Notes under the pieces: generated by a model
What the model saw: the letters and a program-made list of their open reading frames with translations, nothing else
Databases searched by the model: none
Told to the model about the DNA's origin: nothing
Made by a program: the position numbers and the translations under genes
Assembly (NCBI RefSeq): GCF_009184545.1
Contig: NZ_QJOW01000001.1
Coordinates: forward strand, 434,001-498,000
Origin: Halosegnis rubeus
GTDB lineage: Archaea > Halobacteriota > Halobacteria > Halobacteriales > Haloarculaceae
Length of the DNA stretch: 64,000 bases
Reading direction: 5' to 3'
In this document: positions 42,358 through 58,181 of the stretch, one piece after another
Position numbering within the stretch: the first letter of the stretch is position 1
How the letters are laid out: every line of letters begins with the position of its first letter

Positions 42358-42363
42358 TCTTGC

Positions 42364-42444: not shown

Positions 42445-42499
42445 TCATCAGGCACCCCTTCGCCGTCCCCTGATTCCACGCAGCAAAACACCGCCTTGA
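42440..42499 (+). CDS. Possible 19-residue micro-ORF
   Basis: ATG at 42440, TGA at 42497-42499. It encodes a basic, proline-rich peptide (MHHQAPLRRPLIPRSKTPP). Support comes only from the well-placed TATA box ~35 bp upstream. It could equally be a non-coding transcript or the broken start of a lost gene. Confidence 0.2.
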   Translation: MHHQAPLRRPLIPRSKTPP

Positions 42500-42508
42500 T
42501 GCGTATAG

Positions 42509-42658
42509 TCAATCACAAGTCGATATCAAGAAGAGTTTCCCAGCCTGACGATGTCGCCATCCCCCTTTGATCGTCACGAGCGCCCCTAAGCCAGCCAACA
42601 CAGCGACCGTTCCGGCACCGATGTGTAGCCAGAGTGTCCAACCTTCCAATGTTGGCAT
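42509..42658 (-). pseudogene. Truncated small membrane protein gene (DUF2306-like N-terminus)
   Basis: Reads 49 residues from ATG 42658: a start MPTLEGWTLWLHIGAGTVAV, helix continuing LAGLGALVTIKGG, then WRHRQAGKLFLIST and a stop. The KGG-x-R-H-R-x-A-G motif after the first helix is what I know from the beginning of haloarchaeal DUF2306-like multi-helix proteins of ~150-200 aa, so the rest is missing. A minus-strand box gtttatttagg (42677-42688) lies ~24 bp before the ATG, so the promoter survives. Family assignment is from memory. The alternative is a genuine one-helix peptide. Confidence 0.5.
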
Positions 42659-42852
42659 ACACACATACCCGAACACGTCCTAAATAAACGTCCTGCACAT
42701 CCGAGAAACGCTACTGCCGGAGCGCTCTCCTTGGACGCCTGTGACCGAGGAGCGCTCTGTATTCAGCACACTTCTAAAGACATCTCTCCGATTGATGATT
42801 CCAACAGAGTCGAAACCCCAGAATAGTGGGACTTACCCCGCTGAATCAAGGA

Positions 42853-42886
42853 GAAAGCCTCGCGCTTTACCGCGGGGAGGATGTCA
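42853..42886 (+). mobile_element. Solo right end of an IS1341-type TnpB element (guide-RNA hairpin scar)
   Basis: Hairpin CCTCGCG (42858-42864), loop ctttac, CGCGGGG (42871-42877), followed by gaggatgtcaa. The same layout, a GC hairpin followed by GGAGGATGTCA, is seen next to tnpB remnants at 51750 and 52249. No tnpB coding sequence lies upstream here. In TnpB systems this end forms the 3' scaffold of the guide RNA. Confidence 0.6.
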
Positions 42887-43172
42887 ATCTGCACTCGTTC
42901 GAACAGTGGTTTCGTCCCTGCCTGGTGGCCGCGTGAGGGTCCACACCTCACTAGCGCGCAGTAGCTGGGCAGGATAAGGCGTGATTTTGTGCTGAAGACC
43001 GGTCAGAAGCTTGATTTGATGATCCTCTTGTGAACACAGCCGACGGTGCACCGCGGGTCAGCATGAGTAATCTGCGAAGAGTGCTGATCACAGGTGTATA
43101 GCCCCAGATAATCTGTCTGCCCCAAGGTAATCTAACTGTATGCCTACGTAGGCGAGCGAACATGTCGTTGCA
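42887..43172. other. Intergenic stretch, nothing recognised
   Basis: Between the solo right end and the importer ATPase gene. Short open frames exist on both strands but show neither haloarchaeal codon bias nor a recognisable motif. It probably contains decayed sequence. Confidence 0.5.
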
Positions 43173-44705
43173 TCAACCCTCGCCTTCGCGCTGGGCGATT
43201 GTAGACTGGGTATTCTCGTACTGAGGTTCTCGACGTAGACATCGGTTCGTTCGGAGTCCGTCACGTGACTCCGGGTGTTCTTCATCACATCGTGATCCGA
43301 ACGCCTTCCGAAGGCGTTCGGCTGCGCCCGCGTCGTCACCCATTCGCGCTAAATCGAATGCCTCCTCAACGACCGTCGCGACACCCTGAGGGAGCTGAAT
43401 ATCACCAAAGACCCCCTCACGCGTCTCAGAGAGCGCAGCAGAATCTACTGGCAAATCCAGCAGCGACCGAATACGATTGGTTGCCCCTGTTTCAGCCCGT
43501 GCCCGTGTTCGAAATACGACCCGCAACTCATCAATAGCACGCCAGGTTTCTTCCGGTAAGTCATAGCTATCTGGCCGGATTTTAGCCGGACAGCGAGTTG
43601 CAAATGGGCAGCCAGTGGGTGGGTCACGTGGGTTTGGCGGCGTCCCCCGCAGTGTAATCCGTGGGCCATCCCATGGCGAACCACTGCCGGGAATCGCTGA
43701 CAATAATGATAGCGTGTACGGATGGGCAGGATCATTGAATACCTGCCCCGTCGGCCCCGTCTCAACGATCATTCCTAAATACATGACAGCAACCCGATCA
43801 GCAATATGCCGAACGACACTGAGATCATGCGCGATAAACAGATATGTAAGTCCGAGCTCCGCCTGAATATCTTCCAACAAATTGATTATACGGGCTTGAA
43901 CGCTCACGTCGAGAGCCGATACCGGCTCATCTAGAACGAGAAAGCGTGGCTCAAGAGCGAGAGAGCGGGCAATCCCAACGCGTTGTCGCTGTCCTCCCGA
44001 AAACTGGTGTGGATATCGGTAAAAATGAGCCTCTTGCAGACCGACTCGATCGAGTAGAGACCGAACACGCTGTTCACGCATTGCAGCCTGCGACTTCTCA
44101 ACTCTCACTTCTACGGTATCCCCATCAGCCTCGAGTGTCACATCTTCGGAAGTAAGGGGGAATCGGTCACGGACTGACGCTGTTAGTGTCGCTCCTGCTG
44201 TATCGACATGAATATCTGGCGTTCGATCCGTCGCCGGCTCCACGTCACCGGTGACTGAGCCGTTTGGAGTCGCTGCTGTTACTGTTGGCCAGTCGTGAGC
44301 TTCTAGTGGTTCGGCAATAATCTCGCCGACGGTAAGCCGTTGGTTCAGACTCTCCTCTGGGTCTTGAAACACCATTCCAGCTTCACGTTGCCAGCGACGC
44401 TTTTGAACGCCGGACAATTCGGTCACATCTCGGCCATCGGTCTGTACAGTCCCACCTGTTGCTTCATTGAGTCCTAATATCGTACGCCCGAGCGTTGTTT
44501 TACCAGACCCAGATTCTCCAACGAGAGCGAGAGTCTCTCCTTCATAAATGTCGAGATTAACTCCATCAACCGCACGAACCGGCGGTGATTGGTTGAGTAA
44601 ACTATTGTCCTCATAATACATCCGCAGGTCACGGACAGAGAGAAACATATCATTGTTTGATTGCTCAGGACCTCTGATCCTACTGCTTGGATTCGATATT
44701 GTCAT
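43173..44705 (-). CDS. Peptide/nickel-type ABC transporter ATPase (OppF-like) with internal insert
   Basis: 510 aa, far longer than OppF (~330). Walker A VGESGSGKTTLGRTIL; Q-loop MVFQDPEESLNQ; signature FSGGQRQRVGIARSLAL; Walker B FLVLDEPVSALD; H-loop FIAHDLSVV; oligopeptide-transporter C-terminal region HPYTLSLLSAIPGSG...TGCPFATRCP. An insert of ~70 residues between Q-loop and signature (NGSVTGDVEPATDRTPDI...VEVRVEKSQ) and a long tail account for the extra length; similar inserts occur in other haloarchaeal OppF proteins. Last gene of a five-gene minus-strand set; starts inside the OppD-like gene stop (4-bp overlap). Confidence 0.92.
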   Translation of the reverse strand: MTISNPSSRIRGPEQSNNDMFLSVRDLRMYYEDNSLLNQSPPVRAVDGVNLDIYEGETLALVGESGSGKTTLGRTILGLNEATGGTVQTDGRDVTELSGVQKRRWQREAGMVFQDPEESLNQRLTVGEIIAEPLEAHDWPTVTAATPNGSVTGDVEPATDRTPDIHVDTAGATLTASVRDRFPLTSEDVTLEADGDTVEVRVEKSQAAMREQRVRSLLDRVGLQEAHFYRYPHQFSGGQRQRVGIARSLALEPRFLVLDEPVSALDVSVQARIINLLEDIQAELGLTYLFIAHDLSVVRHIADRVAVMYLGMIVETGPTGQVFNDPAHPYTLSLLSAIPGSGSPWDGPRITLRGTPPNPRDPPTGCPFATRCPAKIRPDSYDLPEETWRAIDELRVVFRTRARAETGATNRIRSLLDLPVDSAALSETREGVFGDIQLPQGVATVVEEAFDLARMGDDAGAAERLRKAFGSRCDEEHPESRDGLRTNRCLRREPQYENTQSTIAQREGEG

Positions 44706-45688
44706 AGCTGCTCACTCTCAATCGTGTATCGATCATCGTACAACAGACATGCAGCGGTGTGGTGAACATCCTCTGTGCCCACCGATACGTGGTCAGGAGG
44801 GTCAGCTAAACAATCCGGCCCCGCTTCGGGACAGCGTGGGGCAAACCGGCAATCTTCAGCCGACCCAGTCGGGGTTGGTACCTCTCCGTCTATTGTCGGA
44901 AGTCGCTCGTTAGGAGGCGTCCTGCCGGGAATAGAATTGAGTAGCGCCTGCGTGTACGGATGGGCTGGATCGTCAAACAGTTCCTTCGTTGGTGCTCGCT
45001 CAACTACCTCACCAGCGTAAACGACATTCACACGGTCTGTTGTCTCCTCGATAACACCCATATCGTGCGTAATGAGGAGAATCGCGAGGTCTTCCTCCCG
45101 GCGAAGACGGTTGAGTAAATCAAGTATCTGCGCCTGTATTGTGACATCGAGCCCAGTCGTTGGTTCATCACAAACCAAAAGATCCGGATCGCACGCAAGC
45201 GCGGCTGCGATCACCGCGCGCTGTTGCATGCCTCCAGATAACTGATGTGGATACTCATCAACACGACTGCTGGGGTCTGGTATGCCGACTGCCTCAAGCA
45301 GCTCAACAGCCCGACTGCGTGCCTCTTTTCCACGAAGGCCCTGATGAATCCGTAGCGCCTCACGAATCTGGTTCCCTATCGTATAGGTTGGGTTCAATGC
45401 ACTTCCGGGATCTTGGAACACAATTGCAAGGTCACCACGGTGGGATTCCCAATGACCATCTGTTAGCTCATCACCACGGAACTGAATCGATCCACTCTCA
45501 ACTTCACCAGGTTCGTCGACCAATCCGAGTACCGAACGGGCAGTAACTGACTTTCCTGACCCTGATTCGCCGACGAGGCCAACGGCTTCTCCGGCATCAA
45601 CATCAAAGCTCACACCATCTACAGCGTGAATTTGCTCACGCTCCGTATGGAATACCGTTCGGAGATTTCGAACCTCGAGCAGACTCAC
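44702..45688 (-). CDS. Peptide/nickel-type ABC transporter ATPase (OppD-like)
   Basis: 328 aa. Walker A VGESGSGKSVTARSVLG; Q-loop IVFQDPGSALNP; signature LSGGMQQRAVIAAALA; Walker B LLVCDEPTTGLD; H-loop LLITHDMGV; C-terminal HPYTQALLNSIPGR with the Cys-rich oligo_HPY region DCRFAPRCPEAGPDC. Normal OppD/DppD length. It overlaps its neighbours on both sides by 4 bp, so all belong to one operon. Works with the OppF-like ATPase as a heterodimer under the two permeases. Confidence 0.95.
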   Translation of the reverse strand: MSLLEVRNLRTVFHTEREQIHAVDGVSFDVDAGEAVGLVGESGSGKSVTARSVLGLVDEPGEVESGSIQFRGDELTDGHWESHRGDLAIVFQDPGSALNPTYTIGNQIREALRIHQGLRGKEARSRAVELLEAVGIPDPSSRVDEYPHQLSGGMQQRAVIAAALACDPDLLVCDEPTTGLDVTIQAQILDLLNRLRREEDLAILLITHDMGVIEETTDRVNVVYAGEVVERAPTKELFDDPAHPYTQALLNSIPGRTPPNERLPTIDGEVPTPTGSAEDCRFAPRCPEAGPDCLADPPDHVSVGTEDVHHTAACLLYDDRYTIESEQL

Positions 45689-47136
45689 GCGCCACCACCC
45701 CGACCAGCTGTGTTACTTGCAGCATCAGACTGTGGGTCAATCGCGTCGCGAATCCCATCGCCTAACGCATTGAAGCCTGTGACTACCAGCGTGATTAGCA
45801 ACCCTGGTATAAGGGAGATATGCCAAGAGCCAGTCCTGACGTAATCTTGCCCGAGGTTGATTGCACGGCCCCACTCTGGCGTTGGCGGTGCAACTCCAAG
45901 CCCAAGATATGAAAGGCCAGCAATGGAAATAATCGCCCCTCCGAGTGTCATTGAACCATAAATTAGCATATACCCGGTAATGTACGGGAACATGTGCCGA
46001 CGCATAATGACGAGTGGACGTTGTCCGAAGGACCTAGCTGCGTCAATCCACTGTCGCTCCGAGACTTGAAGAGCAGGCCCACGCAATGACCGCCACATAT
46101 AGGTCCAGCCAGTGAACGCGAAAATGAGCGCGAGAAGAAACCCACCACTGTAGATATTGCCGAGCCATGTCCCACTAAGGACGCTGGTAAGCATAATTAG
46201 CAGCAGCAACTGTGGCATTGCCATAACTCCATCTGATATCAGAACCGTTGATAAATCAACGCGCCCCTTATAATACGCAGCAGTGAGGGCAAGCGACGAA
46301 GCGAGTAATGCACTCAGTCCGACTGACAGTAACCCGATGACGAGAGAGATGCGTGAGCCGACAACGATGAATGTGAACAAGTCACGACCAGTTGGGAGTG
46401 TCCCAAATGGGTGGAATCGACCGAAATTATCATACTCCATCGGCAGGACACGGTCGGCGTTATCACCAGTCGACTGTGAGCCACGGTTAGCTTGGCCGAC
46501 GAGCACCGTCTCTACGCTATCAGTCTCTGTGTCGAAGTACTGTATCTCGTTAGAGTAGGAGTTTCGCATGTTTTGCTCGTAGGTAGTTGGACCAAGTGCA
46601 GGGGCAAAGACCGCCATCGTGACGAACATGAACACGACAAAGAGTCCGAAGATGCCCCATCGGTGAGTCCGAAACCGGTCGATTACATCGTCACGGGGAG
46701 TCCAATTTGCAGCACGGTACACACGGCGGTAAAGCTGATAGCCCGCAGCGACCCACGCCGCAATCGCAAACGCGTACACGTACACGAGCGTAGCGCGAAG
46801 TCCCCATGCTAGTCCTGGTCGTAAATTGAGGAAGGTTCCAACCCACTCTGACCCGTCCCAGTATCCTTGGTTGGGGATGGTCTCTCTTGATAAGAGCGTT
46901 GGAACTGCTCGGATAGCGGCCTCGAACTCCGTGAGCGCTGCGACAGCACCACCCGCTCCAACCGGGAGTGCAACGACGAAATCACCGAGGATACTCATCA
47001 AGAATGCCAGCACGGCGCTGGCTTCCAGAGCAAACAGAGCCACACCGATTGCAGCCCAGATGAAAACTGTTGATTCAGTTGTTGCGACGGTCTTTATTAC
47101 CGATTTATAACTCCTATCGGGAGTGGTGTTCGACAT
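45685..47136 (-). CDS. Peptide/nickel-type ABC transporter permease (OppC-like) with long N-terminal extension
   Basis: About 483 aa from the ATG at 47136 (MSNTTPDRSYKSVIKT); frame upstream to 47169 overlaps the OppB-like gene end. A ~165-residue extension with three extra helices (FIWAAIGVALFALEASAVLA, FVVALPVGAGGAVAAL, GLRATLVYVYAFAIAAWVAAG) precedes the usual OppC_N segment (HRWGIFGLFVVFMFVTMAVFAPAL) and the BPD permease core with the EAA loop around WIDAARSFGQRPLVIMRRHMFP. The extension is typical of haloarchaeal dipeptide permeases. It forms the membrane channel with the OppB-like protein. Confidence 0.92.
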   Translation of the reverse strand: MSNTTPDRSYKSVIKTVATTESTVFIWAAIGVALFALEASAVLAFLMSILGDFVVALPVGAGGAVAALTEFEAAIRAVPTLLSRETIPNQGYWDGSEWVGTFLNLRPGLAWGLRATLVYVYAFAIAAWVAAGYQLYRRVYRAANWTPRDDVIDRFRTHRWGIFGLFVVFMFVTMAVFAPALGPTTYEQNMRNSYSNEIQYFDTETDSVETVLVGQANRGSQSTGDNADRVLPMEYDNFGRFHPFGTLPTGRDLFTFIVVGSRISLVIGLLSVGLSALLASSLALTAAYYKGRVDLSTVLISDGVMAMPQLLLLIMLTSVLSGTWLGNIYSGGFLLALIFAFTGWTYMWRSLRGPALQVSERQWIDAARSFGQRPLVIMRRHMFPYITGYMLIYGSMTLGGAIISIAGLSYLGLGVAPPTPEWGRAINLGQDYVRTGSWHISLIPGLLITLVVTGFNALGDGIRDAIDPQSDAASNTAGRGGGA

Positions 47137-47137
47137 T

Positions 47138-48157
47138 TCAGTTCCCCTCCAACCCCACCCGGGGGTCAATGATCGTGTACAGGATGTCTTGTATGAGATT
47201 GATGCTGACTATCATGAGGATGAATATGTACATGAGTGTCCCAACGAGCGGAAGGTCTCCCTGTATAGCAGCCTGATAGAACAGCCAACCGATTCCGTTG
47301 ATTGAGAACACAGTCTCAACGAGAACGCTTCCACCGATGAGCAGAAACGCCTCGCTTGTAATAATCGGGACAAGTGGCACTAGCGCGTTTCTGAGGATAT
47401 GTTTCCAAACGATTAGCCGATCTGAGACCCCCTGTGCTCTCGCGAAATCAATGTAGTCTTCGTTTCGAACTTCCAGTACTGCGGTTCGCCCGATGCGCAT
47501 CTCATTGCCCATTGACGCAGATCCAAGTACAATTGCGGCCGGAAGCACCTTCTTTGTCGCAGCAAGGAACCCATCAACTGTACCAATTTGTGACATATCT
47601 GGACTTCCCGTCAGACTATCCAATGGGATGATGAAATTTTGATAATCAATACCAATGATAGCGGCCGATGAGCCAAGCACTGCTAATAACATAATTGCGA
47701 GCCAGAAATTTGGCATTGCTCGCCAGACAATTCCCCCGAGTGAAGCGGCGTAATCTGCACCTGTATTTGAGTTCATGCCGGCGTAGAAGCCCAGTGGGAC
47801 ACCGATGCAGATTGCAATCAGTACTGACCAGAACCCAAGCCACAGTGTTCGTGGGAGGAAATCAAGGATGAGTGCATTCACATTCGATCCCTGATACAGC
47901 AGCCATGTTTGGCCTAAATCGAACGTGAGGAGATTCCCCATCCACTCAACGTAATGTTGTAGTGGTGGTTGGTCAAGCCCGAGCTGTTGTTGTGCAGCAG
48001 TGTACTCGGCTGAATTACGTACCTGCCCTTCACTGAGCAATCGGGCAGCTGGGTCAATCGGGCCCATGAATATGATAAACCACGTCATCGTGGTTCCAAG
48101 CCAGATGACTGGTAGGCTCATCAGCAGCCGCTTGCCAAGGTACGTCAGCCGGCTCAC
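47138..48157 (-). CDS. Peptide/nickel-type ABC transporter permease (OppB-like)
   Basis: 339 aa with six core helices. OppB features: N-terminal helix LGKRLLMSLPVIWLGTTMTWFII, the loop with QQQLGLDQPPLQHYVEWMGNLL, and the EAA-like loop YIDFARAQGVSDRLIVWKHILRNALVP, then SINGIGWLFYQAAIQGD. Normal length. It begins 89 bp after the binding-protein gene and ends 1 bp before the OppC-like gene. Confidence 0.95.
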   Translation of the reverse strand: MSRLTYLGKRLLMSLPVIWLGTTMTWFIIFMGPIDPAARLLSEGQVRNSAEYTAAQQQLGLDQPPLQHYVEWMGNLLTFDLGQTWLLYQGSNVNALILDFLPRTLWLGFWSVLIAICIGVPLGFYAGMNSNTGADYAASLGGIVWRAMPNFWLAIMLLAVLGSSAAIIGIDYQNFIIPLDSLTGSPDMSQIGTVDGFLAATKKVLPAAIVLGSASMGNEMRIGRTAVLEVRNEDYIDFARAQGVSDRLIVWKHILRNALVPLVPIITSEAFLLIGGSVLVETVFSINGIGWLFYQAAIQGDLPLVGTLMYIFILMIVSINLIQDILYTIIDPRVGLEGN

Positions 48158-48246
48158 GGCTGCGAACTCCAGACGGAAAGTGCCCGTGCGTTATTTTTCA
48201 TGAATGATGTTAAAACGAATTGAATCTCTTCTGGTCGATGGCCGAG

Positions 48247-50148
48247 CTACCGACTGAGCATTACGTCAGTGAACGTCTGGTTTTCCATCACATCATACAT
48301 CGTGATGTCGACGTTTTGATGCCAGAATCGCTGAGATGTCGTGTGAGCGAATGGCAACTCCTGTACCGATGCCCAGTTGATCTCCTCGATTGTCTGGAAT
48401 GCCTCATTCCGAGAAGCTTGGTCGCCGCCAACGTAGTTGGACTCCCACGTGTCGAGAGCCTGCTGGCGCAGCGACTCCTCGTGGTAGCTTCCCTCTGCAC
48501 CCCAGCGCGTGAACTGACCGCCTGGACTTTCTCCGTACAGGAATCGAAGGAAGTTCTGTGGGCCGGGATACTCCATCCCGTCGCCGAGCCCGAACACCTC
48601 CATATCGCCAGAAATCGCGCGACTGATGATGGTGCCAAACTCCGCCTGCTCAATACTCATATCGATATAGGCAGACCGGAGCTTCGATTGGAGCACGGTG
48701 AAAACCGATTCGTAGGCGCTGTTGCCAGCAATTGTGGTGCCGGTAATCGAGTAGCGGTTCGAGTCGCTGTAGCCAGCAGCCTCCATTACCTCTTGTGCGG
48801 ATTGGAGGTCCGTTGTTCCGTATCCGTAGGGATAGCCGTCTTCTCCGTACTCGGTGTTTGATTGATACCCACTTTCTGCGTGCTGGTCGTACGTTTCAGC
48901 CGAACTCACGCCATCCTCAAACGTCGGATAGGGTGCAGGCGGCGTAATGTGATAGCCTGCTTTTGCATTCCCTTTGTAGATATCGCGGGCAATTTCATCC
49001 TGATTCATCGCGTAGGCGAATGCCTTCCGGACCGCTATCGGGACCTCCAGTGTGTTAAACACGAGATATTCTGTCGAGAGCGATGGAATCTCGCCGTAGT
49101 TAACCGTCATCCCATCGTCAAACGTGTAGGTCCCGACAGAACGATTCCCGTCCGTTTCTGATATCGAGACGCCATCGGGATTGAACGAGGCCGTTGGCAT
49201 CCCTTCAAGAACATCGGCGTTCTGTTGTCTGAACCGGCTTAGTCGTGTGTTCCCCGATCCAACGACTGTGTACGTGATTCCGTCCAGTTCCGGCTGGCTC
49301 CCATAGTACTCATCGAACGCGGTGAGTTGTATCTCACTCCCCTTCGTCCACGAGTCGACCTGGAACGGACCAAGCCCTGCGTACGCCGGCCCATCTCCTT
49401 GGGTGGAGAAGAATTCGTTGTACGCATACTCTCCATCGTATCCTTCGATATCTCCGACGGAGCCTTCTGGAAGAATTGAGAATGCACCACCAGCAATTTG
49501 GAACAGCGTGTACTGGAACGGTGCTGCAAGCGTCATCTCAAACGTGTAGTCGTCGACCGCCTCTACCTCAAGCGAGCCCGGAACGTAGTCGGCGAGTGTC
49601 TCCTCGTCAGTTGGCTCGGAGCGTGATGGATCTTTCTCGTGAGCGATCGTCATCGTCGTTCCGATTATATCGTCGCGGTTTCGGGAGTTTTCAGAGCCTG
49701 CCAGTCGTCGATATGAGTAGACGATATCGTCTGCAGTGAATTCCGATCCGTCGTGGAAGGTGACGCCCTCACGCAGTTGGAACGTGTACGTGAGCCCATC
49801 ATCAGACATTGAGTAATCTGTCGCGAGCGCGGGTTTCGGCGGATACGTGCCGTTCTCAAACTCCATCAGCGACCGGCCGTACTGGTCGTACCCAGCTCCG
49901 GACCCCTTCGCGTTGATCGGGTCCAGTGTCTGAATCGAACCAGTTGCCATCATCTGGAGCGTGCCACCAGTTGTTGGCGTTCCCCCTGAATCCGTCGTGT
50001 CATTATTTGAATCCTGGTTTGTTGATGATTCATCGGTCGCCGTGGCGTTGTCCTCGCTCGGGCCACTCTGACAACCAGTTAGTGCAGTTGCCGCACCAAC
50101 TCCTGCAGCAGTCAGGAATCCCCGCCGGGTCGTATCGTTTGGCATCAT
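48247..50148 (-). CDS. Extracellular solute-binding lipoprotein, family 5 (peptide/nickel type)
   Basis: About 633 aa from the paired ATGs at 50148/50145. The Tat signal is clear (NDTTRRGFLTAAGVGAAT) and a lipobox LTGC follows, so it is exported folded and lipid-anchored, as usual in haloarchaea. A Ser/Thr/Asp-rich linker precedes the SBP_bac_5 domain: TLDPINAKGSGAGYDQYGRSLME, ATDYSMSDDGLTYTFQLREGVTFHDGSEFTADDIVYS, and YEMTLAAPFQ-like FEMTLAAPFQYTLFQ. It binds the imported substrate, most likely peptides, though some members bind nickel, heme or sugars. First gene of the operon; 90-bp gap to the permease. A GTG at 50202 lies in the promoter palindrome and is not the likely start. Confidence 0.92.
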   Translation of the reverse strand: MMPNDTTRRGFLTAAGVGAATALTGCQSGPSEDNATATDESSTNQDSNNDTTDSGGTPTTGGTLQMMATGSIQTLDPINAKGSGAGYDQYGRSLMEFENGTYPPKPALATDYSMSDDGLTYTFQLREGVTFHDGSEFTADDIVYSYRRLAGSENSRNRDDIIGTTMTIAHEKDPSRSEPTDEETLADYVPGSLEVEAVDDYTFEMTLAAPFQYTLFQIAGGAFSILPEGSVGDIEGYDGEYAYNEFFSTQGDGPAYAGLGPFQVDSWTKGSEIQLTAFDEYYGSQPELDGITYTVVGSGNTRLSRFRQQNADVLEGMPTASFNPDGVSISETDGNRSVGTYTFDDGMTVNYGEIPSLSTEYLVFNTLEVPIAVRKAFAYAMNQDEIARDIYKGNAKAGYHITPPAPYPTFEDGVSSAETYDQHAESGYQSNTEYGEDGYPYGYGTTDLQSAQEVMEAAGYSDSNRYSITGTTIAGNSAYESVFTVLQSKLRSAYIDMSIEQAEFGTIISRAISGDMEVFGLGDGMEYPGPQNFLRFLYGESPGGQFTRWGAEGSYHEESLRQQALDTWESNYVGGDQASRNEAFQTIEEINWASVQELPFAHTTSQRFWHQNVDITMYDVMENQTFTDVMLSR

Positions 50149-50199
50149 CGGGACAACTTCGCGCTTGCCGTAATTACGTTGGTAATAGCGATGTATGCC

Positions 50200-50240
50200 C
50201 ACAAGAATTCTTGTGTATGCCTACAATCATATATATACGC
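50200..50240 (-). promoter_or_regulatory. Importer operon promoter with 16-bp perfect palindrome over the start site
   Basis: Minus-strand TATA box gtatatatatg (50228-50238). About 26 bp downstream, where transcription should begin, lies CACAAGAATTCTTGTG (50200-50215), a perfect palindrome flanked by copies of gcatac on its two sides. A repressor bound there would block initiation. This leaves a ~55-nt leader before the ATG, unusual for haloarchaea. Confidence 0.65.
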
Positions 50241-50295
50241 CTAATTATTTGGTAAAATATCAGAAGCTATTCAACCACGGATTTGAAACTCGGCG

Positions 50296-50775
50296 ATGAT
50301 GCCAGATTCAGAGACGCAAAAGAACGAGTGGCGGGCAACACTGGAACAGGCCGATAAGATGGGGACTCGGCTTAGTGATGATGGCTGGCAAGTTGTCACG
50401 GTACGGGCTGCACATGTCACACCAATTCCCCCTACAGATGACCCAGAAGGTCGACCGGGACTTGCCTACATCGCTCAGGGAGAAGTTGCTGAGCCATTCC
50501 AGCGAGTTATTAACGGTGGTACGTTCGACAATTACGAAGTATTTAATCGGGCTGTTGGGTCGGATATCTTTTCACTAACACGCGTCTCCGACACAGAGAA
50601 TGAAGTAGCCGTACTTCTCGTTGGAACACTCAACCGGTCATCACTCGAAACACTGCCAGAGACTGCTATCCAGCGTGGAGAACTTTATTCACACGTCGAC
50701 TTGTTGGACGGGACTCGGCTCGGAAGCTTTCATCACAGTACCCCCTCGCTCTTCTTCCCGGGTGAATCGGAGTGA
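50296..50775 (+). CDS. Conserved protein of unknown function, partner of the phosphodiesterase gene
   Basis: 159 aa from two adjacent ATGs (MMPDSETQKNEWRATLEQAD). Soluble. Features are WRATLEQADKMGTRLSDDGWQVVTVRAAHVTPIPP, GRPGLAYIAQGEVAEPFQRVI, and a strand-rich second half ending HHSTPSLFFPGESE. I do not recognise the family beyond a memory of uncharacterised haloarchaeal homologues. It diverges from the importer operon across a 147-bp region holding the palindrome and plus-strand AT-rich boxes (gtaaaatatc). Its stop overlaps the phosphodiesterase GTG (GTGA), so the two are co-made. Confidence 0.75.
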   Translation: MMPDSETQKNEWRATLEQADKMGTRLSDDGWQVVTVRAAHVTPIPPTDDPEGRPGLAYIAQGEVAEPFQRVINGGTFDNYEVFNRAVGSDIFSLTRVSDTENEVAVLLVGTLNRSSLETLPETAIQRGELYSHVDLLDGTRLGSFHHSTPSLFFPGESE

Positions 50776-51722
50776 ATAGTGATGAGGCAGCCGGATCGGT
50801 TCTCGCTCGACTCAATAATCCGGCTGGTGAGCACACACGCTTTGCAGTCATCGCTGATCCGCACGTATCAACCCGCTCAGAGGGGACATCGAAGTTGTTT
50901 GAACAGACCGAGGAGCATTTTGAAGCAGCTATCGAGGATATCAACAAGCGAGAGGTCGATGCCGTCCTATCACCGGGTGACCTGACCAAAGACGGTGAAC
51001 CGTGGAACTACGACGCTGTCGACAAGGCAGTTTCAAGACTCGATGCACCGTTTCTCGCAGTTCCAGGTAATCACGATGTGCCGAAGTCTCGTGATGAGCA
51101 CAATACGGCCGATATTTCGTGGTTTGCAAAGCAGTATGGACCGGGAACGTTGCCATTCCACACGACTATCGGCGGCATGGACGTAGTTGGCGTTAACAGC
51201 GCTGGAACTCGCAATCGATTGTTCGAGAGCCATGACGGTCGTGTAACAGACGAAGACCGAGCGTGGCTACGAGAGACGCTCACTGATGCTGGCCCCTCAA
51301 TTGTACTTGTCCACCACAATTTCCCACCGGTCTCTGACCAGATTTCTGCCCACCGGGAAGCGGAACCTGAGATGCATCTCCCGCCCGTGATGCGTGATCC
51401 CAAACCGTTTGCAGATGCGCTTGCTGAGGGAGGTGCCGACCTCGTTTTTACCGGCCACTATCATTTACCCGCCACTGGACGCTACGCAGGCGTTCGCGAA
51501 ATCGCTGCGCCAACTACGTGTTCGTTCCCACAGGCGTACCTCCTGTGTGAAACTACACCCAATGGTACTGTCGTTCGGTTCATCCCCATTGGAGATGAAC
51601 AATCCCTTGGCGAAGCGCATGCTCAACGCACAAATGAATCGACTACATCACGTGGACTGACAGCCATTGCGGCGGCTCGTGTCGCCTCGCTCCCGCTTGT
51701 AGATGAGCACAATAATAAATAG
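50772..51722 (+). CDS. Icc-like metallophosphodiesterase
   Basis: 316 aa from GTG 50772, overlapping the previous stop. Complete class III phosphodiesterase motifs: FAVIADPHVST (D-x-H), VLSPGDLTKDG (GD), LAVPGNHDVPKS (GNHD), IVLVHHNFPPV (H) and LVFTGHYHLPA (G-H-x-H). Relatives cleave cyclic nucleotides, glycerophosphodiesters or phospholipid headgroups. The divergent neighbour is a peptide-type importer, so intake and breakdown of a phosphodiester compound is one possible link, unproven. A ~40-residue C-terminal tail (SLGEAHAQRTNEST) looks unstructured. Confidence 0.88.
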   Translation: MNSDEAAGSVLARLNNPAGEHTRFAVIADPHVSTRSEGTSKLFEQTEEHFEAAIEDINKREVDAVLSPGDLTKDGEPWNYDAVDKAVSRLDAPFLAVPGNHDVPKSRDEHNTADISWFAKQYGPGTLPFHTTIGGMDVVGVNSAGTRNRLFESHDGRVTDEDRAWLRETLTDAGPSIVLVHHNFPPVSDQISAHREAEPEMHLPPVMRDPKPFADALAEGGADLVFTGHYHLPATGRYAGVREIAAPTTCSFPQAYLLCETTPNGTVVRFIPIGDEQSLGEAHAQRTNESTTSRGLTAIAAARVASLPLVDEHNNK

Positions 51723-51749
51723 GCACTAACGCTGAGGAGAATCAAGGAT

Positions 51750-51784
51750 TGACATCCTCCTCCGCCTGAAGGCGGAGGAATCCC
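51750..51784 (-). mobile_element. Right end (guide-RNA hairpin) of a decayed TnpB element
   Basis: On the minus strand: CCTCCGCC, loop ttca, GGCGGAGG, an 8-bp perfect stem (51759-51778), followed by aggatgtcaa. It lies 17 bp downstream of the tnpB remnant stop at 51801, the normal order tnpB then right end. Confidence 0.75.
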
Positions 51785-51800
51785 GACCGCATTTGAGATA

Positions 51801-52071
51801 TTAGGGTTTGCAGTCTACCACTTGTTCCCTCGGTAAGAATCCGTGAGACAAGTCATATAGGTAGACTTCGGGCTGTGCCAGCCAGCCGATACTCCTATCC
51901 CCACCCAAATCGGGTGCAGACTCGGAGTTACTTTGATTGATGTCGAGGCGGATGTTCTCCGCCCCGTTCACGTCAGCATTGAACGCATCATCATGTTCTT
52001 CACACACGTACAAACCACGTTTGACACGCTGACTGTCGTCTTCCCTACCGCAGACGCAACACGTCTTGCCT
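51801..52071 (-). pseudogene. tnpB (IS1341-type, OrfB) C-terminal remnant
   Basis: Open ~89 codons to the stop. It begins after two stops with GKTCCVCGREDDSQRVKRGLYVCEEHD, the TnpB zinc finger (C-x2-C ... C-x2-H), then AFNADVNGAENIR (RuvC-III region with catalytic Asp), and ends GWLAQPEVYLYDLSHGF..REQVVDCKP, the standard tail of haloarchaeal OrfB. The N-terminal ~330 residues are gone. Its right end follows at 51750. Confidence 0.85.
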
Positions 52072-52138
52072 CATCAAAATACATTATATCAATCTATCCT
52101 GTGTTCTGTGAGTCACACGCTTTCCGAGATACTCCCAG

Positions 52139-52219
52139 GGGCTTCTCCCTCAATCAACAACATACTTCTTCGACCGCGAGAGCGGGACGTTTCACACGAG
52201 AGAACAGGTCGTGTCGTAG
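52139..52219 (+). pseudogene. Second tnpB C-terminal remnant, plus strand
   Basis: A 26-codon stretch reads GLLPQSTTYFFDRESG then TFHTREQVVS and a stop. It aligns with the tail of haloarchaeal OrfB (GWLAQPSTFLFD..REQV), including the remnant on the opposite strand ~70 bp away. The right-end hairpin at 52249 follows on the same strand, confirming the identity. Nothing further upstream is recognisable. Confidence 0.65.
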
Positions 52220-52248
52220 ACCAGCAAATATCCCACCTGCGGGACGGG

Positions 52249-52281
52249 AAGCCCCGCCGTTCACGACGGGGAGGATGTCAC
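52249..52281 (+). mobile_element. Right end (guide-RNA hairpin) of the second decayed TnpB element
   Basis: CCCCGCCG (52252-52259), loop tttca, CGACGGGG (52265-52272), one mismatch, followed by aggatgtca. Same structure as the ends at 42853 and 51750. The preceding 26-codon tnpB tail belongs to it. Confidence 0.7.
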
Positions 52282-52301
52282 GGTGCCGTACCGAACTAGA
52301 G

Positions 52302-52354
52302 GCTCTGCTGAAATCGTTAAGAACTGATAGAATCGGCGGGCGAGATACAGAGCC
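52302..52354. repeat. Short inverted-repeat element resembling an insertion-sequence end
   Basis: GGCTCTG (52302-52308) and CAGAGCC (52348-52354) face each other across 39 bp; the left end continues ctgaaatc. A related ggccctgttgaaatc occurs at 56212. This may be the scar or deletion derivative of a DDE-type insertion sequence. Low confidence. Confidence 0.3.
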
Positions 52355-52445
52355 ACGTCCACTCTAATCGTTGCCACCCGATAACTATATATTAAAAAAC
52401 ACTAATACATATCTGGTTTTTTATACTTGGTCCGTCCCAAATATA

Positions 52446-52796
52446 ATGATGCAAAAAGCCGTACTCCTCAGGTGTCCAATCTGCGACTCAGTCCGGACAC
52501 TCGAAGGTGAAAGAAACAGATACGCAAAAAATGACCTGTATAAAACTGCCAAGAATCATCTAGCCTCGCATAATCTCGACGAAACTAAATCTGCAATCCG
52601 AAAATGCGAGATAGTTTCTGACGCCGTTGAGATTGTCATTTATTCAGAGGACCACGACCCGCTTCCGAACAAAGAATGGAAACAACGAAACGCTACTTGG
52701 CTCCCAGAAAATGTTCTGGATCGAGTGGATACGTCTAACCCTTCGCCTGAATCATCAGCTGACACGACGCCGATTCAACTCCACAACGAGGATTGA
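52446..52796 (+). CDS. Small zinc-ribbon-like protein of unknown function
   Basis: 116 aa from the ATG at 52446, supported by ttttttatac centred 25 bp upstream (leaderless pattern). N-terminus MQKAVLLRCPICDSVRTLEG with C-x2-C, then KNHLASHNLDETKSAIRKCE, which supplies His and Cys residues that could complete a zinc site. C-terminal part ends in a Ser/Asp-rich tail. No family recognised; DNA or RNA binding is possible. Base composition matches the island. Confidence 0.65.
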   Translation: MMQKAVLLRCPICDSVRTLEGERNRYAKNDLYKTAKNHLASHNLDETKSAIRKCEIVSDAVEIVIYSEDHDPLPNKEWKQRNATWLPENVLDRVDTSNPSPESSADTTPIQLHNED

Positions 52797-52903
52797 CTAG
52801 TCACACCCAAGAGGATTCAGAGAATGAGTATTCGTATCACACTCTATGAAAGTCGTTCAGCCTGAGTAAACATGGAGACTAGTGTTCACTTCCAAACATT
52901 CGG

Positions 52904-55327
52904 GTGTCCATCCACAATACTAAATCTCTCTCGACAGGTGATCTAGTGAACGACAGAGAGCTTAGTGATCCCAAGTACTACCTCAACAGAGAACTCTCCG
53001 AGCTCGCATTCCAGGAACGAGTTCTTGAAGAGGGAATGGATGGACGCAATTTACCGCTTGAACGTCTTCGATTTCTAGCGTTCTTCACAAAAAACACTGA
53101 CGAGTTCTTTATGAAACGCGTTGGTGGGCTTAAACAGCAGATTGATGCCGGGATATCTGAGACGACACCGGATGGCCGGACACCGAAACAACAGTGGGTT
53201 GAAGTGCTCGATACTGCCCGTCCACTTTTTCGCCAACAGTCTGAATATTGGCAGTCAGTACTCAAACCGACGCTTGCAGAGGAAGGGATCGAGATTTGTA
53301 CTCCTGACGAGCTAACCGTAGGGGCGCAAGAACAGTTGCGTACGTACTTTGAGGAGTCCATTCTCCCGACTCTGACACCACTCGCATTTGATCCAGCTCA
53401 CCCATTCCCGTTCATCTCGAACCTCTCTCTTTCGCTTGCTGTTCTCTCGTCGAATGGAGGTAACGAGACAACATTCACCCGAATCAAGATACCTCCGAAC
53501 CAGCCTCGATTGATAGATGTCCCCACTGAGGCCGATCGATATCTTCTCATCGAAGACCTCATCGAATGTAATCTAGATCTACTACTCCCCGATCTTGACA
53601 TTCGCGATGTCTCAAAATTCAAAGTGACTCGGAACGCCGAGGTACGACGCAACGAAGAGGTCGCTGAGGACCTCACTGAGATGGTTGAGGACGTTCTTGA
53701 ACAGCGACGCTTCGCAACGGTGGTTCGACTTGAAGTTGACGCCGATATGCCTGCTGAGTCGCTGTCGATTCTTAAAACCCAACTTGGATTAGCCGACCGA
53801 GAAATATTCCATCGGACTGGTCCGATTGATTTTGAGGACTTTTTTAAACTCATTGAGATTGATCGCCCTGATCTCAAACCCTCCTCTTGGACGCCCAAAC
53901 CACACCCACGATTAGGCTCGTTGGCAAGTGACAGCTCAGATAATATGACGGAGATATTTGATAAGGTTAAAAAGGAGGATATCCTCGCGCATCACCCGTA
54001 TCATTCCTTTGAGGGAACAGTTCAACGGTTCCTACACGCGGCGGCGAACGATCCTGACGTACTCGCTGTGAAGGCAGCAATATATAGAACTGCGAGTGAT
54101 TCAAAAGTTATTGAAAGCCTCATCAATGCCGCAGAAAACGGCAAACAGGTAGCCGTGATGGTCGAGCTGAAGGCTCGATTCGACGAAAAAAACAATCTCG
54201 AGTGGGTCCGACAACTTGAACAAGAGGGAATCCACGTAGCCTACGGGACTGTCGGTTTGAAGACTCACACGAAGACGGCGCTCGTTGTTCGGCAAGAAGA
54301 CGATGGCGTTCAACTCTACTCACACATCGGTACCGGAAACTATCACTCAGGGACGGCGAAGGGGTATTCCGATTTGGGATTATTGACTGCAGATCGGGAT
54401 ATTGGGTTTGATCTCACGAAGGTGTTCAATTTCTTCACCGGGCCGACGCTCGATAACCGATTCCGAAAGCTCCTGATTGCACCTGTGACGATGCGCGAGC
54501 GGTTCACTGAGATGATCAGACGGGAAATTGATCACGCCCATGCTGATCGGAAGGCACGGATTGTAGTCAAGATAAATGGGCTTGAAGATCTTGAGATGGT
54601 CAAGGAGCTCTATCGTGCCTCGATAGCTGGTGTCGAGATCGACCTTATTGTTAGGGACATCTGCCGGCTTCGCCCCGGTATCGATGGGCTGAGCGAGAAC
54701 ATCACTGTACACTCGATTGTAGGTCGATTCCTTGAACACGCTCGAATATTTCACTTCGAGAACGGGGGAACCCCCGAGTGGTATATTGGTTCTGCCGACT
54801 GGATGACGCGAAATCTCGACTATCGAGTAGAGGCTGTTACTCCAGTCGAGAATACAGAACTGCGCAGACAACTCAGGTTCATCTTGGAGGCATCACTGAA
54901 AGATAACCGCCGCCGGTGGATAATGCAAAGCGACGGAAGCTACGAACGAGTCTTCCCCGATGACGGACCGGTGCGAGACATCCAAGAGATCTTAATGAAA
55001 GCGACTGAAGCAGCTCTCGACCGCGGCCACGGGCCAGGAATGGTCGTCGATACAGATCTCATTGATTCAACTCTCCTCATTGAGGATGTCGCAGAGGACA
55101 AAACGAACACCGTATCTGAGGAGTCAGACGAAGTCACTGCCGACGATGATAGAGAACAGGCCCATCCGAATGGTGGGGACGAGTCTGTCTTCGACACCCA
55201 CTCAGACCACTGGTATCAACCTGATAGCGAGACGTACGACTGGGCCGTTCGAACGACAGCCGGTGAACGACGATACTACAAGACACGTGATGGAGCGCGA
55301 GGTCGTCTTCAGGCCGAATATGAGTGA
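52904..55327 (+). CDS. ppk1: Polyphosphate kinase 1
   Basis: 807 aa; PPK1 is normally 690-740 aa, and the extra ~80 residues form an acidic C-terminal tail (DEVTADDDREQAHPNGGDES...GRLQAEYE). Domains are in order: N (YLNRELSELAFQERVLEEG), head (AFFTKNTDEFFMKRVGGLK), C1 with GLKTHTKTALVVR and YSHIGTGNYHSGTAKGYSDLG holding the phosphorylated His474, and C2 with HSIVGRFLEHARIFHFENGG holding His612. It makes polyphosphate from ATP, reversibly. GTG start at 52904 is tentative; a later GTG near 52946 is possible. Converges on a PPP phosphatase gene 21 bp away. PPK1 is patchy in haloarchaea, in line with island origin. Confidence 0.95.
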   Translation: MSIHNTKSLSTGDLVNDRELSDPKYYLNRELSELAFQERVLEEGMDGRNLPLERLRFLAFFTKNTDEFFMKRVGGLKQQIDAGISETTPDGRTPKQQWVEVLDTARPLFRQQSEYWQSVLKPTLAEEGIEICTPDELTVGAQEQLRTYFEESILPTLTPLAFDPAHPFPFISNLSLSLAVLSSNGGNETTFTRIKIPPNQPRLIDVPTEADRYLLIEDLIECNLDLLLPDLDIRDVSKFKVTRNAEVRRNEEVAEDLTEMVEDVLEQRRFATVVRLEVDADMPAESLSILKTQLGLADREIFHRTGPIDFEDFFKLIEIDRPDLKPSSWTPKPHPRLGSLASDSSDNMTEIFDKVKKEDILAHHPYHSFEGTVQRFLHAAANDPDVLAVKAAIYRTASDSKVIESLINAAENGKQVAVMVELKARFDEKNNLEWVRQLEQEGIHVAYGTVGLKTHTKTALVVRQEDDGVQLYSHIGTGNYHSGTAKGYSDLGLLTADRDIGFDLTKVFNFFTGPTLDNRFRKLLIAPVTMRERFTEMIRREIDHAHADRKARIVVKINGLEDLEMVKELYRASIAGVEIDLIVRDICRLRPGIDGLSENITVHSIVGRFLEHARIFHFENGGTPEWYIGSADWMTRNLDYRVEAVTPVENTELRRQLRFILEASLKDNRRRWIMQSDGSYERVFPDDGPVRDIQEILMKATEAALDRGHGPGMVVDTDLIDSTLLIEDVAEDKTNTVSEESDEVTADDDREQAHPNGGDESVFDTHSDHWYQPDSETYDWAVRTTAGERRYYKTRDGARGRLQAEYE

Positions 55328-55348
55328 TTCCGTGTCAGGTGTGTAAGT

Positions 55349-56032
55349 CTAGGCTGGGTCAACGACTTTGGAAGTAGCGCGTTCTTGATGCGTTTTCCCC
55401 TCTACAGTGATGAATTCATCATTCCGATAGTCGTACGCTGTGAGTGTTCCTCCGTAGACGCAACCGGTATCAAGGCAAACAGCATATTCTCGATTAACCG
55501 GGTGGTCATGAACGGTGTGGCCGAAAAAGACGCGGTACGGCCCGTCGTAGTCATCATACCAGAACGGTCCGTCATACCCGTTCCCGTGCGGGGCACGCAT
55601 CGTCAACAGCTCATCAACGGTGTGGTGTTTAAGCTGTCGCTGAGGATCGATACCGCCATGCACAACAAGTATGTCGTCGAACGAGATGGCAACAGGAAGT
55701 GAATTAAGATAGTCGAGGTCTCCGTTACGGAGCCAGTCTGGGTTCTTGTCGCCGCGCACGATCTTCTGTTCGTTATTTCCACGGACGCTGACGAGACGTG
55801 AATCCTCACGGACGAGATCAATGACACCAGGACTATCTGGCCCTTTTCTCACCAGATCACCGACTAAAAAGACAAAATCGTCATCATCTAAGTTGAGTTC
55901 CGCAAGAAGAACCTCAAGAGCGACACGACTTCCGTGGACATCTCCAATAATATAGACTCCTCGATCACTACTTATTTCGAACCGATCGTGCTGTGCTTCA
56001 ACGTCGGTATTGAACTGAGGTTTTGTGCTCAT
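55349..56032 (-). CDS. PPP-family metallophosphatase (PrpA/ApaH-like)
   Basis: 227 aa. Motifs: VYIIGDVHGSRVAL (GDxHG), FVFLVGDLVRKGPDS (GDxxxxGP), VSVRGNNEQKIV, LVVHGGIDP (HGG), VFFGHTVHDHP (GH) and CLDTGCVYGG (DTG). These are the serine/threonine phosphatase or dinucleoside-tetraphosphatase motifs. The canonical GNHE is GNNE here, replacing the His thought to act as proton donor; I have seen this variant in similar prokaryotic phosphatases but cannot verify its frequency. It is convergent with ppk1, so a link to polyphosphate or nucleotide turnover is possible. Confidence 0.85.
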   Translation of the reverse strand: MSTKPQFNTDVEAQHDRFEISSDRGVYIIGDVHGSRVALEVLLAELNLDDDDFVFLVGDLVRKGPDSPGVIDLVREDSRLVSVRGNNEQKIVRGDKNPDWLRNGDLDYLNSLPVAISFDDILVVHGGIDPQRQLKHHTVDELLTMRAPHGNGYDGPFWYDDYDGPYRVFFGHTVHDHPVNREYAVCLDTGCVYGGTLTAYDYRNDEFITVEGKTHQERATSKVVDPA

Positions 56033-56451
56033 TTAATCTGGTCTAGTGTCGAGTCAGTTGTTCTGAGAGTTGGTCTACAGGTTGATTTACCTCTGTTCTA
56101 CATGAATCAGTTGCTAATAGAGGGCAATACTGCTATGTAGTTCTCGGTGATTGACCGTGTTCTTCTGTGTGGATTCATCAAGTTGACAATCACTAAGTGA
56201 TAATTCACGCCGGCCCTGTTGAAATCCTATTCTTCAGATGCAAACTGGAGTGAAACAGCTGGTCGATGATGCCTGGTATTGACTACCGAGAATGTTACCA
56301 GCTCAGAGAAAAGTTGCGATCACCGTGTGAGATACACTGCGCGAATGTAGCAGCCTGCTCATCAGTAATTAAGACTATTTAATTCGGTCAGACAATTAGA
56401 CGCTGTGTCATTTTAGCGGTCCACCGCTTGATGATTACTGAATGCAGGGAC
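56033..56451. other. Intergenic stretch with possible insertion-sequence debris
   Basis: AT-rich, no supportable gene. ggccctgttgaaatc at 56212-56226 resembles the end at 52302. A short palindrome atcactaagtgat sits near 56190. Otherwise nothing recognised. Confidence 0.4.
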
Positions 56452-56565
56452 CTACGTGTCTACAAATTCAACATTTGTGATCTCGAACCGCGCTCCGCCG
56501 CCGGTCCCATCTGTAACACGAATGTGCCAACCGTGGGCATCAAGACCTTCGAACCACTCCGCGAT
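56452..56565 (-). pseudogene. Histidine kinase C-terminal remnant
   Basis: On the minus strand, codons ending at TAG 56452 read AEWFEGLDAHGWHIRVTDG, then TGGGARFEITNVEFVDT. The GW-x-I-x-V-T-D-G-x-x-G-G-A-R-F-E-I pattern is the last strand-turn-strand of the HATPase domain of haloarchaeal sensor kinases. About 37 residues remain; everything upstream is replaced by unrelated plus-strand coding sequence. Confidence 0.7.
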
Positions 56566-56736
56566 CTTGATGGTGACGACGACGATGCGCTCGTCTCGGC
56601 GGTCGCCGACTGGAGCACCGAGCAAATCCACGAGAACGACAAGGTCCCGGGGTCGCGGAGCGTGCGGCGACAGGCGGCGAAGCTGTGTCGCGCGAACGGG
56701 TACCAGATTCGCAACGACGACTGGCTCGGCGTGTGA
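56560..56736 (+). pseudogene. 3' fragment of a GC-rich gene of unknown function
   Basis: The plus frame ends GDDDDALVSAVADWSTEQIHE..VPGSRSVRRQAAKLCRANGYQIRNDDWLGV. It is GC-rich and acidic unlike its surroundings, so it looks like core haloarchaeal coding DNA. The open frame extends left to 56428, but that part is antisense to the histidine kinase tail, so only ~59 codons are likely original. The TGA stop belongs to the TnpB element right end. Family not recognised. Confidence 0.5.
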
Positions 56737-56790
56737 ACTACCCCTGCCTACTCGGCAACGCTTTGCGTTGCTTCCTTGAGGCAGGGGCTT
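56733..56790 (-). ncRNA. Right end and probable TnpB guide-RNA (omega/reRNA) 3' scaffold
   Basis: Outer stem CCCCTGCCT/AGGCAGGGG (56741-56749 with 56779-56787) encloses inner stem GCAACGC/GCGTTGC (56755-56761 with 5665-71 of the same block, i.e. 56765-56771), and overlaps the 3' end of tnpB. This is the position of the guide RNA scaffold in characterised TnpB systems; the guide would be the minus-strand sequence just beyond 56733. Transcription is not shown by sequence. Confidence 0.55.
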
Positions 56791-58031
56791 CCTGTTTCGA
56801 CGACGCGACTTGCAGAAACAGACTCTCGATGAGTTTGCTCCACAGCGGTCGCAGTCTCCGCAGGCGTTCTATCTTCGGAGTGAACCACTCCTAGCTTCTC
56901 CAAGCCGCGTTCCCAGACGTTCAACGCAGCGTTATAGTCACGGTCAGTAGTGTATCCGCAACTCGGGCAACTGTGTTCTCGGACCCAGAGCGGTTTGTCG
57001 GTTTTGACACCACACTCGTTACATGCTTTCGTGGTGTCTTTCGGGTCAACTTCCACGACGTGACAGCCACGCTTTCGTCCGTGGTGTTTCAGAATGGTGA
57101 TGAAGTCACGCCACCCGATTTCGTGCGTATTCCGACTATTCCGGCCGCTTTCCAGCATCCCCTTCACGTTCAGATTTTCCACGAATACGGCATCGTACTC
57201 AGTGGTGTAGAACGCCGCGACTTTGTGCTTGAAGTCTGATTTCTTGTTCCGCATTCGTTTGTGGACTTTGGCCACCATCTGTCGCTGTTCTTCCCAGTTA
57301 TTACTGCCGTGCTGTTTCCGCGATAAGTTCCGTTGCTCGTGTTCCAGCCGTTCCCGGTCGCTGGATAGGTTGAGGCGGCCGAGTTGTCTGCGGTCGGAAT
57401 CGTGGATGAAGTTCAAAATACCGAGGTCAAGCCCCACGGTATCTTTGGTGTCTAGCTCGGCTGGGTCGGGTTTGTCGGGTTCGGCTTGTTCGACGTTGAG
57501 ACAGGCGAACCATGCACCAGTACGGTCTTTTTTGATCGTGACGTGCTTCACGTCAGTCTCGTCTAGAAGGTCGCGGTGCAACCGGATAGGAACCTGTAGT
57601 GTTTCGCCGTTGACTTTCTTCAAAGTGAGGAGTCCACGCCCTGACGGGCCACTGTTGTCATCGAGTTCGAAACCCGTCTGGCGGTACGTGAAACTCCGGT
57701 ACTCGTGTGGTGCTTTCCAGTTCAACGAGCCAACGTCGTACCCGGCGTCTCGCCGTTTAGCGAGATTCGTGATGTTCGTTTCAATCTGCTCGACAGCTTG
57801 TTGCAGCACTGTCGAGTATACGTTGTTCAGGTCGGTCCACCAGTCTTTCAACTCAGGGAGTTCGTCTCGGACTTGTGTGACGCGCTGTTTGACCGTTCCA
57901 GCATCTTCGGGGATGCGGTTAAACCGGTGAAGCGCGTGGTTGTAGACCTGTCGCACGGTATCGCGTACCCAGTCTAGTCGCTCCCGCTGCTGACCGTCAG
58001 GGAACAGCCGGTATTTGAGTACGTAATCCAT
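56748..58031 (-). CDS. tnpB: TnpB RNA-guided nuclease (OrfB, IS1341 type), intact
   Basis: 427 aa. N-terminal domain MDYVLKYRLFPDGQQRERLDWV; RuvC-I Asp202 in TVGLDLGILNF; RuvC-II Glu285 in AVFVENLNVKGML; zinc finger C337-x2-C340 ... C355-x2-C358; RuvC-III Asp in TTDRDYNAALNVWERG. All catalytic residues are present, so nuclease activity is plausible. Usual size for the family. The start codon lies within the left-end hairpin and the stop within the right-end hairpin. TnpB proteins cut target DNA next to a short motif using the element's own right-end RNA, which keeps the element at its site. Confidence 0.93.
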   Translation of the reverse strand: MDYVLKYRLFPDGQQRERLDWVRDTVRQVYNHALHRFNRIPEDAGTVKQRVTQVRDELPELKDWWTDLNNVYSTVLQQAVEQIETNITNLAKRRDAGYDVGSLNWKAPHEYRSFTYRQTGFELDDNSGPSGRGLLTLKKVNGETLQVPIRLHRDLLDETDVKHVTIKKDRTGAWFACLNVEQAEPDKPDPAELDTKDTVGLDLGILNFIHDSDRRQLGRLNLSSDRERLEHEQRNLSRKQHGSNNWEEQRQMVAKVHKRMRNKKSDFKHKVAAFYTTEYDAVFVENLNVKGMLESGRNSRNTHEIGWRDFITILKHHGRKRGCHVVEVDPKDTTKACNECGVKTDKPLWVREHSCPSCGYTTDRDYNAALNVWERGLEKLGVVHSEDRTPAETATAVEQTHRESVSASRVVETGSPCLKEATQSVAE

Positions 58032-58092
58032 GCGTCGTACATGGATTATCCAGGCGCAGGAAGGTAAAGGTGTGCGCCCAGCTTCGCGGGGC

Positions 58093-58147
58093 GATTCATC
58101 TCCGCCCTACTCGCTCCCTTCGGTCGCTTCTTGAGGACGGAGGCTTC
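58093..58147 (-). mobile_element. Solo right end of another TnpB element, beside the intact one
   Basis: On the minus strand CTCCGTCCT (58142-58134) pairs with AGGGCGGAG (58108-58100), with gcgaccgaagggagcgag between and atgaatc after. Same layout as the intact element's right end (gaagcc, stem, inner sequence, gagtaggg, stem, terminal TGA-x). Its tnpB is absent; only ~34 bp separate it from the GNAT gene. Two elements were therefore inserted next to each other at the island edge. Confidence 0.6.
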
Positions 58148-58181
58148 TCGCCCAATCAGCTAAACAGGCTACGGTCCACTG

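What the first reader, a model, noticed from the sequence alone, without database searches (positions are those of the whole stretch)
56733..58067. Intact TnpB element inserted exactly at a stop codon after TTTAC; excision restores GTG-TAA
On the minus strand the left end follows TTTAC. Joining 56732 to 58064 gives GGC-GTG-TAA, so the neighbouring gene would end in the same residue with TAA instead of the TGA supplied by the element. The insertion is thus silent for the host protein. It also fixes the element borders and proposes TTTAC (or TTAC) as target motif and TnpB target-adjacent motif.
Basis: partly seen in the sequence, partly recalled or inferred. Interest (0 to 1): 0.6.

Follow-up and report, generated by a model that had tools for sequence, protein, structure and literature searches.

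The report
TnpB transposon landed on stop codon

Summary
The window holds an intact minus-strand tnpB (427 aa, RuvC D202/E285/D365) in a TnpB-only IS200/IS605-type element. The right end (…GGGGTAGTTCAC|, base 56733) is correct and shared by about 90 copies. The left end is wrong. Relatives at 77-81% protein identity stay homologous for about 95 bp past the claimed border, through a left-end hairpin, to TTAG|C. The element is therefore 56733..58159 (1427 bp), preceded on its strand by TTAG. "TTTAC" (58068-58064) lies inside it and aligns with the TATA-like TTTAA upstream of tnpB in relatives. Three empty sites in a sister species best fit a TTAG|flank join. The guide beside the left hairpin covaries with the target (28 TTAG/AAGC, 7 TTAC/AAGG, none mixed), as the IS608 pairing rule predicts. 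Excision would give GGC-GTC-TAA (sister species: GGC-GTC-TGA), so "restores Val-stop" holds by a different join. Landing on stop codons recurs (11 of 25 right flanks with a coding call): TTAG antisense is C-TAA and the right end TCAC antisense is G-TGA, in the same frame. Motif availability accounts for the frequency. The neighbour ORF is only the last ~64 codons of a ~200-aa gene, so silence for the host protein is moot. New member of a known kind.

The parts
56733..58159 (-). whole IS200/IS605-type TnpB-only element, 1427 bp (5'-CTGATTGGG...GGGGTAGTTCAC-3' on minus strand)
   Evidence: homology limits against relatives, three empty sites, guide-target covariation
58160..58163 (-). target tetranucleotide TTAG (CL), host DNA; predicted TnpB target-adjacent motif
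   Evidence: TTAG before C in 26 of 31 surveyed copies, TTAC in 4, TTAT in 1 (with L005's pick corrected by hand); also L214-L216
58085..58159 (-). left end: guide AAGC (within GAGAAGCC) and imperfect subterminal hairpin
   Evidence: conserved in all close relatives; DNA fold (the fold itself is not significant, z -1.4)
58063..58068 (-).
   Evidence: alignment of left-end regions; promoter role inferred from position
56748..58031 (-). tnpB, 427 aa, RuvC D202/E285/D365, zinc finger C337/C340/C355/C358
56733..56800 (-). right end: guide GAAG, strong hairpin, cleavage site TCAC; predicted 3' scaffold of the omega RNA
   Evidence: fold z -4.9; arm sequences vary together across genomes (seen by eye in the matches)
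56713..56732 (-). predicted omega-RNA guide (ACGCCGAGCCAGTCGTCGTT), host DNA just past the right end
   Evidence: position after the right end; inference from ISDra2 TnpB (PMC8612924)
56734..56736 (+). TGA stop of the neighbour ORF, supplied by the element
   Evidence: reverse complement of the conserved right end TTCAC
56540..56732 (+). 3' remnant (about 64 codons) of a DUF5789-type haloarchaeal gene
   Evidence: only residues 39-102 of the ORF match, in 80 of 146 family genomes; full gene in G001

Best explanation
A TnpB-only IS200/IS605-type element. A Y1 TnpA acting in trans would have joined its single-stranded circle 3' of TTAG on the minus strand, choosing that site by base pairing between TTAG and the AAGC guide beside the left-end hairpin. 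TTAG lay across the stop codon of the convergent gene (C-TAA on the plus strand). Because the right end finishes in TCAC (G-TGA on the plus strand), the host's ...GT|C-TAA became ...GT|G-TGA: same last residue, new stop, same frame. TnpB with an omega RNA that reads through the right end into host DNA should cut TTAG-ACGCCGAGCC... when the site is emptied and so favour retention of the element. Shown here: borders, motif, guide-target covariation, stop swap, intact catalytic residues. Inferred: transposition in trans, TAM = TTAG, nuclease activity.
For: Homology to relatives runs from TTAG|C to TTCAC|. Empty sites in G001 for the window element (GGC-GTC-TGA-ACA versus joined GGC-GTC-TAA-ACA), L002 and L003 fit TTAG|flank without a gap. 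Fifth base C in 31 of 31 copies. Guide-target table 28 TTAG/AAGC, 7 TTAC/AAGG, 0 mixed, Fisher p 1.5e-7; one TTAT/AAGC copy lies outside it. This is the IS608 code (CL TTAC-GL AAAG, CR TCAA-GR GAAT; PMC5934647). An autonomous copy L004/L111 with TnpA in the same genome has the same ends and TTAG. Of 89 right flanks, 25 have a coding call and 11 of these are genes ended by the element's G-TGA; opposite-strand genes in the other two frames: 1. Haloprofundus plasmid gene LZK19_RS00605 is annotated as ending inside such an element. ISDra2 TnpB match E 4e-32 with D191/E278/D361 conserved.
Against: No strain-level empty site with an identical flank exists in the searched sets; G001 is about 88% identical and in it the four bases corresponding to TTAG are changed at each of the three sites (for example TTAC at the L003 site). 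In the L003 comparison the TTAG and TTAGC joins score almost equally. No RNA-seq and no activity data.
Confidence: 0.93

Rival explanations
1. One reading: the left end lies at 58063 after TTTAC, and TTTAC/TTAC is target and TAM.
For: TTTAC is present at 58068-58064, and TTAC is the target of IS608 and of a TTAC subgroup in haloarchaea.
Against: Seven close relatives align through this point to TTAG about 95 bp further out. No guide or hairpin follows it. TTTAC is not conserved there.
Confidence: 0.02
2. Same element, but the cut is TTAGC|TGATT (1426 bp, 56733-58158), with C part of the target.
For: C follows TTAG in every copy, so conservation alone cannot place the cut.
Against: The window and L002 empty sites in G001 need an extra gap if the C is kept in the target; L003 is a near-tie. 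The join would put GTG-CTA at the host gene's end, losing the stop. TTAC-type copies share the C while the tetranucleotide changes with the guide.
Confidence: 0.06
3. Two elements: a complete one inside 56733-58063 next to a solo hairpin remnant of another at 58064-58163.
For: The left hairpin looks like a right-end hairpin and resembles left ends of elements with very different TnpBs.
Against: All close relatives on unrelated flanks carry the same hairpin at the same distance from tnpB.
Confidence: 0.01

Closest known systems
Haloarchaeal IS605/IS1341-type elements (ISNph5-ISNph22 of Natronomonas pharaonis; PMC3119063); NC_007427 copy H4
   Same: TnpB (IS1341-type), no terminal inverted repeats, subterminal palindromes, no target duplication, 4-5 base targeting sequence; the H4 copy has TTAG|C and GGGGTAGTTCAC|
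   Different: only about 69% DNA identity to H4; the individual ISfinder entries could not be compared here
IS608 (Helicobacter pylori)
   Same: target tetranucleotide, guide-target pairing, left/right cleavage logic (PMC5934647)
   Different: TTAG/TCAC with guides AAGC/GAAG instead of TTAC/TCAA with AAAG/GAAT; no tnpA in this copy
ISDra2 TnpB (Deinococcus radiodurans)
   Same: TnpB homologue with the same catalytic triad
   Different: ISDra2 target and TAM is TTGAT (PMC8612924)

Membership tests
IS200/IS605 (TnpB-only, IS1341-like) | TnpB with RuvC triad and zinc finger | tested here: met
IS200/IS605 (TnpB-only, IS1341-like) | subterminal palindromes at both ends, no terminal inverted repeats | tested here: met
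   the left-end fold alone is not significant
IS200/IS605 (TnpB-only, IS1341-like) | insertion 3' of a short motif without target duplication | tested here: met
   three empty-site comparisons
IS200/IS605 (TnpB-only, IS1341-like) | guide sequence pairing with the cleavage sites | tested here: met
   covariation 28/0 versus 0/7
IS200/IS605 (TnpB-only, IS1341-like) | Y1 TnpA for mobility | tested here: inconclusive
   absent from this copy; two Y1 TnpA genes in the genome, one beside a tnpB copy with the same ends and TTAG; transposition in trans untested
TnpB omega-RNA-guided nuclease | TAM-dependent RNA-guided cleavage | not testable with these tools
   sequence homology only

The most novel reading that the evidence does not exclude
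The left and right cleavage motifs (TTAN and TCAN) are kept such that insertion over a convergent gene's N-TAA always supplies N-TGA in the same frame: a selected 'stop-for-stop' soft landing rather than a by-product of the pairing code. IS608 (TTAC/TCAA) would have the same property.
Probability: 0.12. Interest if true: 0.5.

Novelty: new member of a known kind. Interest (0 to 1): 0.33.

Why it matters
Correct borders give the right TAM (TTAG) and guide for any test of this TnpB; TTTAC would send the assay astray. The natural covariation of target and guide (TTAG/AAGC versus TTAC/AAGG) is evolutionary support for the IS608 pairing code in haloarchaea. The stop-for-stop swap explains why such elements so often look as if they end neighbouring genes, and it affects gene annotation: the stop belongs to the transposon.

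Tried and rejected
I first read the hairpin at 58085-58150 as a remnant of a second element; dropped when all close relatives carried it. A pentanucleotide target TTAGC was considered and ranked below TTAG|C after the empty sites. A special preference for stop codons: 11 of 89 copies (12%) are at stops, against 6 of 70 TTAG sites (8.6%) in the window that are C-TAA stops, so no preference beyond the motif is shown; stop-free length alone (23 versus 13 and 13 of 89) was too blunt. Rfam found no known RNA family. A concatenated flank search scored only two candidates per genome, so absence of other empty sites there means nothing. No duplication of the tRNA-Arg 3' end was found. Two paper searches failed on syntax; one for stop-codon insertion by IS605 returned nothing.

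Full report
What is there. The minus strand at 56748-58031 encodes a 427-aa TnpB with OrfB_IS605 and Cas12f1-like_TNB domains. It aligns to ISDra2 TnpB (8bf8, E 4e-32) with the catalytic D191/E278/D361 matched by D202/E285/D365. The genome is haloarchaeal: relatives come from Natronomonas, Halorientalis and Salinibaculum. It holds 17 places that match this TnpB.

Borders. Homology to relatives stops at 56733, and the end GGGTAGTTCAC|variable flank is shared across the family. The left end is not at 58063. In seven relatives on unrelated flanks (L038-L042, L046, L048) homology continues about 95 bp further, through a hairpin, to TTAG|C. In 31 copies with a recognisable left end the four bases before the element are TTAG in 26 (one, L005, corrected by hand), TTAC in 4 and TTAT in 1; the next base is always C. 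TTTAC at 58068-58064 aligns with TTTAAC/TTTAAG/TTTAAT about 35 bases before the tnpB start, most simply its TATA box (inference).

Where exactly is the cut? Three independent insertions have an empty counterpart in sister genome G001. Window: G001 reads GGC-GTC-TGA-ACA; joining 56732 to 58160 gives GGC-GTC-TAA-ACA. L002: 501 columns at 83% identity, ungapped at the join if TTAG|flank. L003: TTAC|AGGTCGC in G001 against TTAG|AGGTCGC joined; this one scores almost equally for TTAGC. Keeping the C in the target needs an extra gap in each case. So the element most likely starts with C and ends with TTCAC: 56733-58159, 1427 bp.

Mechanism. In IS608 the cleavage sites are recognised by tetranucleotide guides beside each hairpin: TTAC with AAAG, TCAA with GAAT (PMC5934647). 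The same pairing fits here: TTAG with AAGC, TCAC with GAAG. It covaries: 28 TTAG copies have AAGC and 7 TTAC copies have AAGG, none mixed. Copies are not independent, so the p value (1.5e-7) is only a guide. This copy lacks tnpA; the genome has two Y1 TnpA genes, one next to tnpB copy L004, whose ends are CTTAG|CTGAAAG...GGGGTAGTTCAC, so mobilisation in trans is plausible but inferred.

The stop codon. TTAG read on the other strand is C-TAA; the right end TCAC read on the other strand is G-TGA. Insertion over a convergent gene's C-TAA therefore replaces it by G-TGA in the same frame. Of 89 distinct right flanks, 25 have a clear coding call within 150 bp (crude GC3 test); 11 are genes ended by the element's TGA, and 1 is an opposite-strand gene in another frame. 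Examples in this genome: window, L003, L004, L007. An independent annotated case is Haloprofundus plasmid gene LZK19_RS00605. In the window, 6 of 70 TTAG sites are C-TAA stops, so motif availability is enough to explain the frequency.

The host gene. The neighbour ORF matches relatives only over its last 64 residues (80 of 146 family genomes). In G001 the gene is about 200 aa or longer with a DUF5789 domain and lies about 170 bp after tRNA-Arg. In this genome the same tRNA-Arg is at window 42283-42358 and a 52% GC stretch runs from about 42 to 57 kb. The gene thus lost its 5' part, most likely when that island arrived (inference). 'Silent for the host protein' has no meaning for an already truncated gene.

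Verdict. A real, intact and ordinary TnpB-only IS200/IS605 element with corrected borders and motif. The stop-codon landing is real and recurrent and follows from the motif.

Noticed in passing
42359-56540: Low-GC (about 0.52 versus 0.66) stretch of about 14 kb between tRNA-Arg (42283-42358) and the truncated DUF5789 gene, which are about 170 bp apart in sister genome G001; carries a dipeptide/oligopeptide ABC transporter operon (43173-50202), a metallophosphatase and a polyphosphate-kinase-like gene (52904-55327, named from its sequence, not searched). No tRNA 3' duplication of 15 nt or more found.
   Followed up: partly
L006, L026, L116, L117, L150, L152, L169: A subgroup of haloarchaeal TnpB elements targets TTAC and has guide AAGG instead of AAGC: natural switch of target and guide together.
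   Followed up: partly
L012, L016, L017 (loci L033, L035, L037): Left-end hairpins 82-87% like the window element's sit near TnpBs only about 24-32% identical, suggesting left ends are shared or exchanged between TnpB lineages.
   Followed up: no
L131: One copy has TTAT before the element with an AAGC guide, a mismatch to the pairing code.
   Followed up: no
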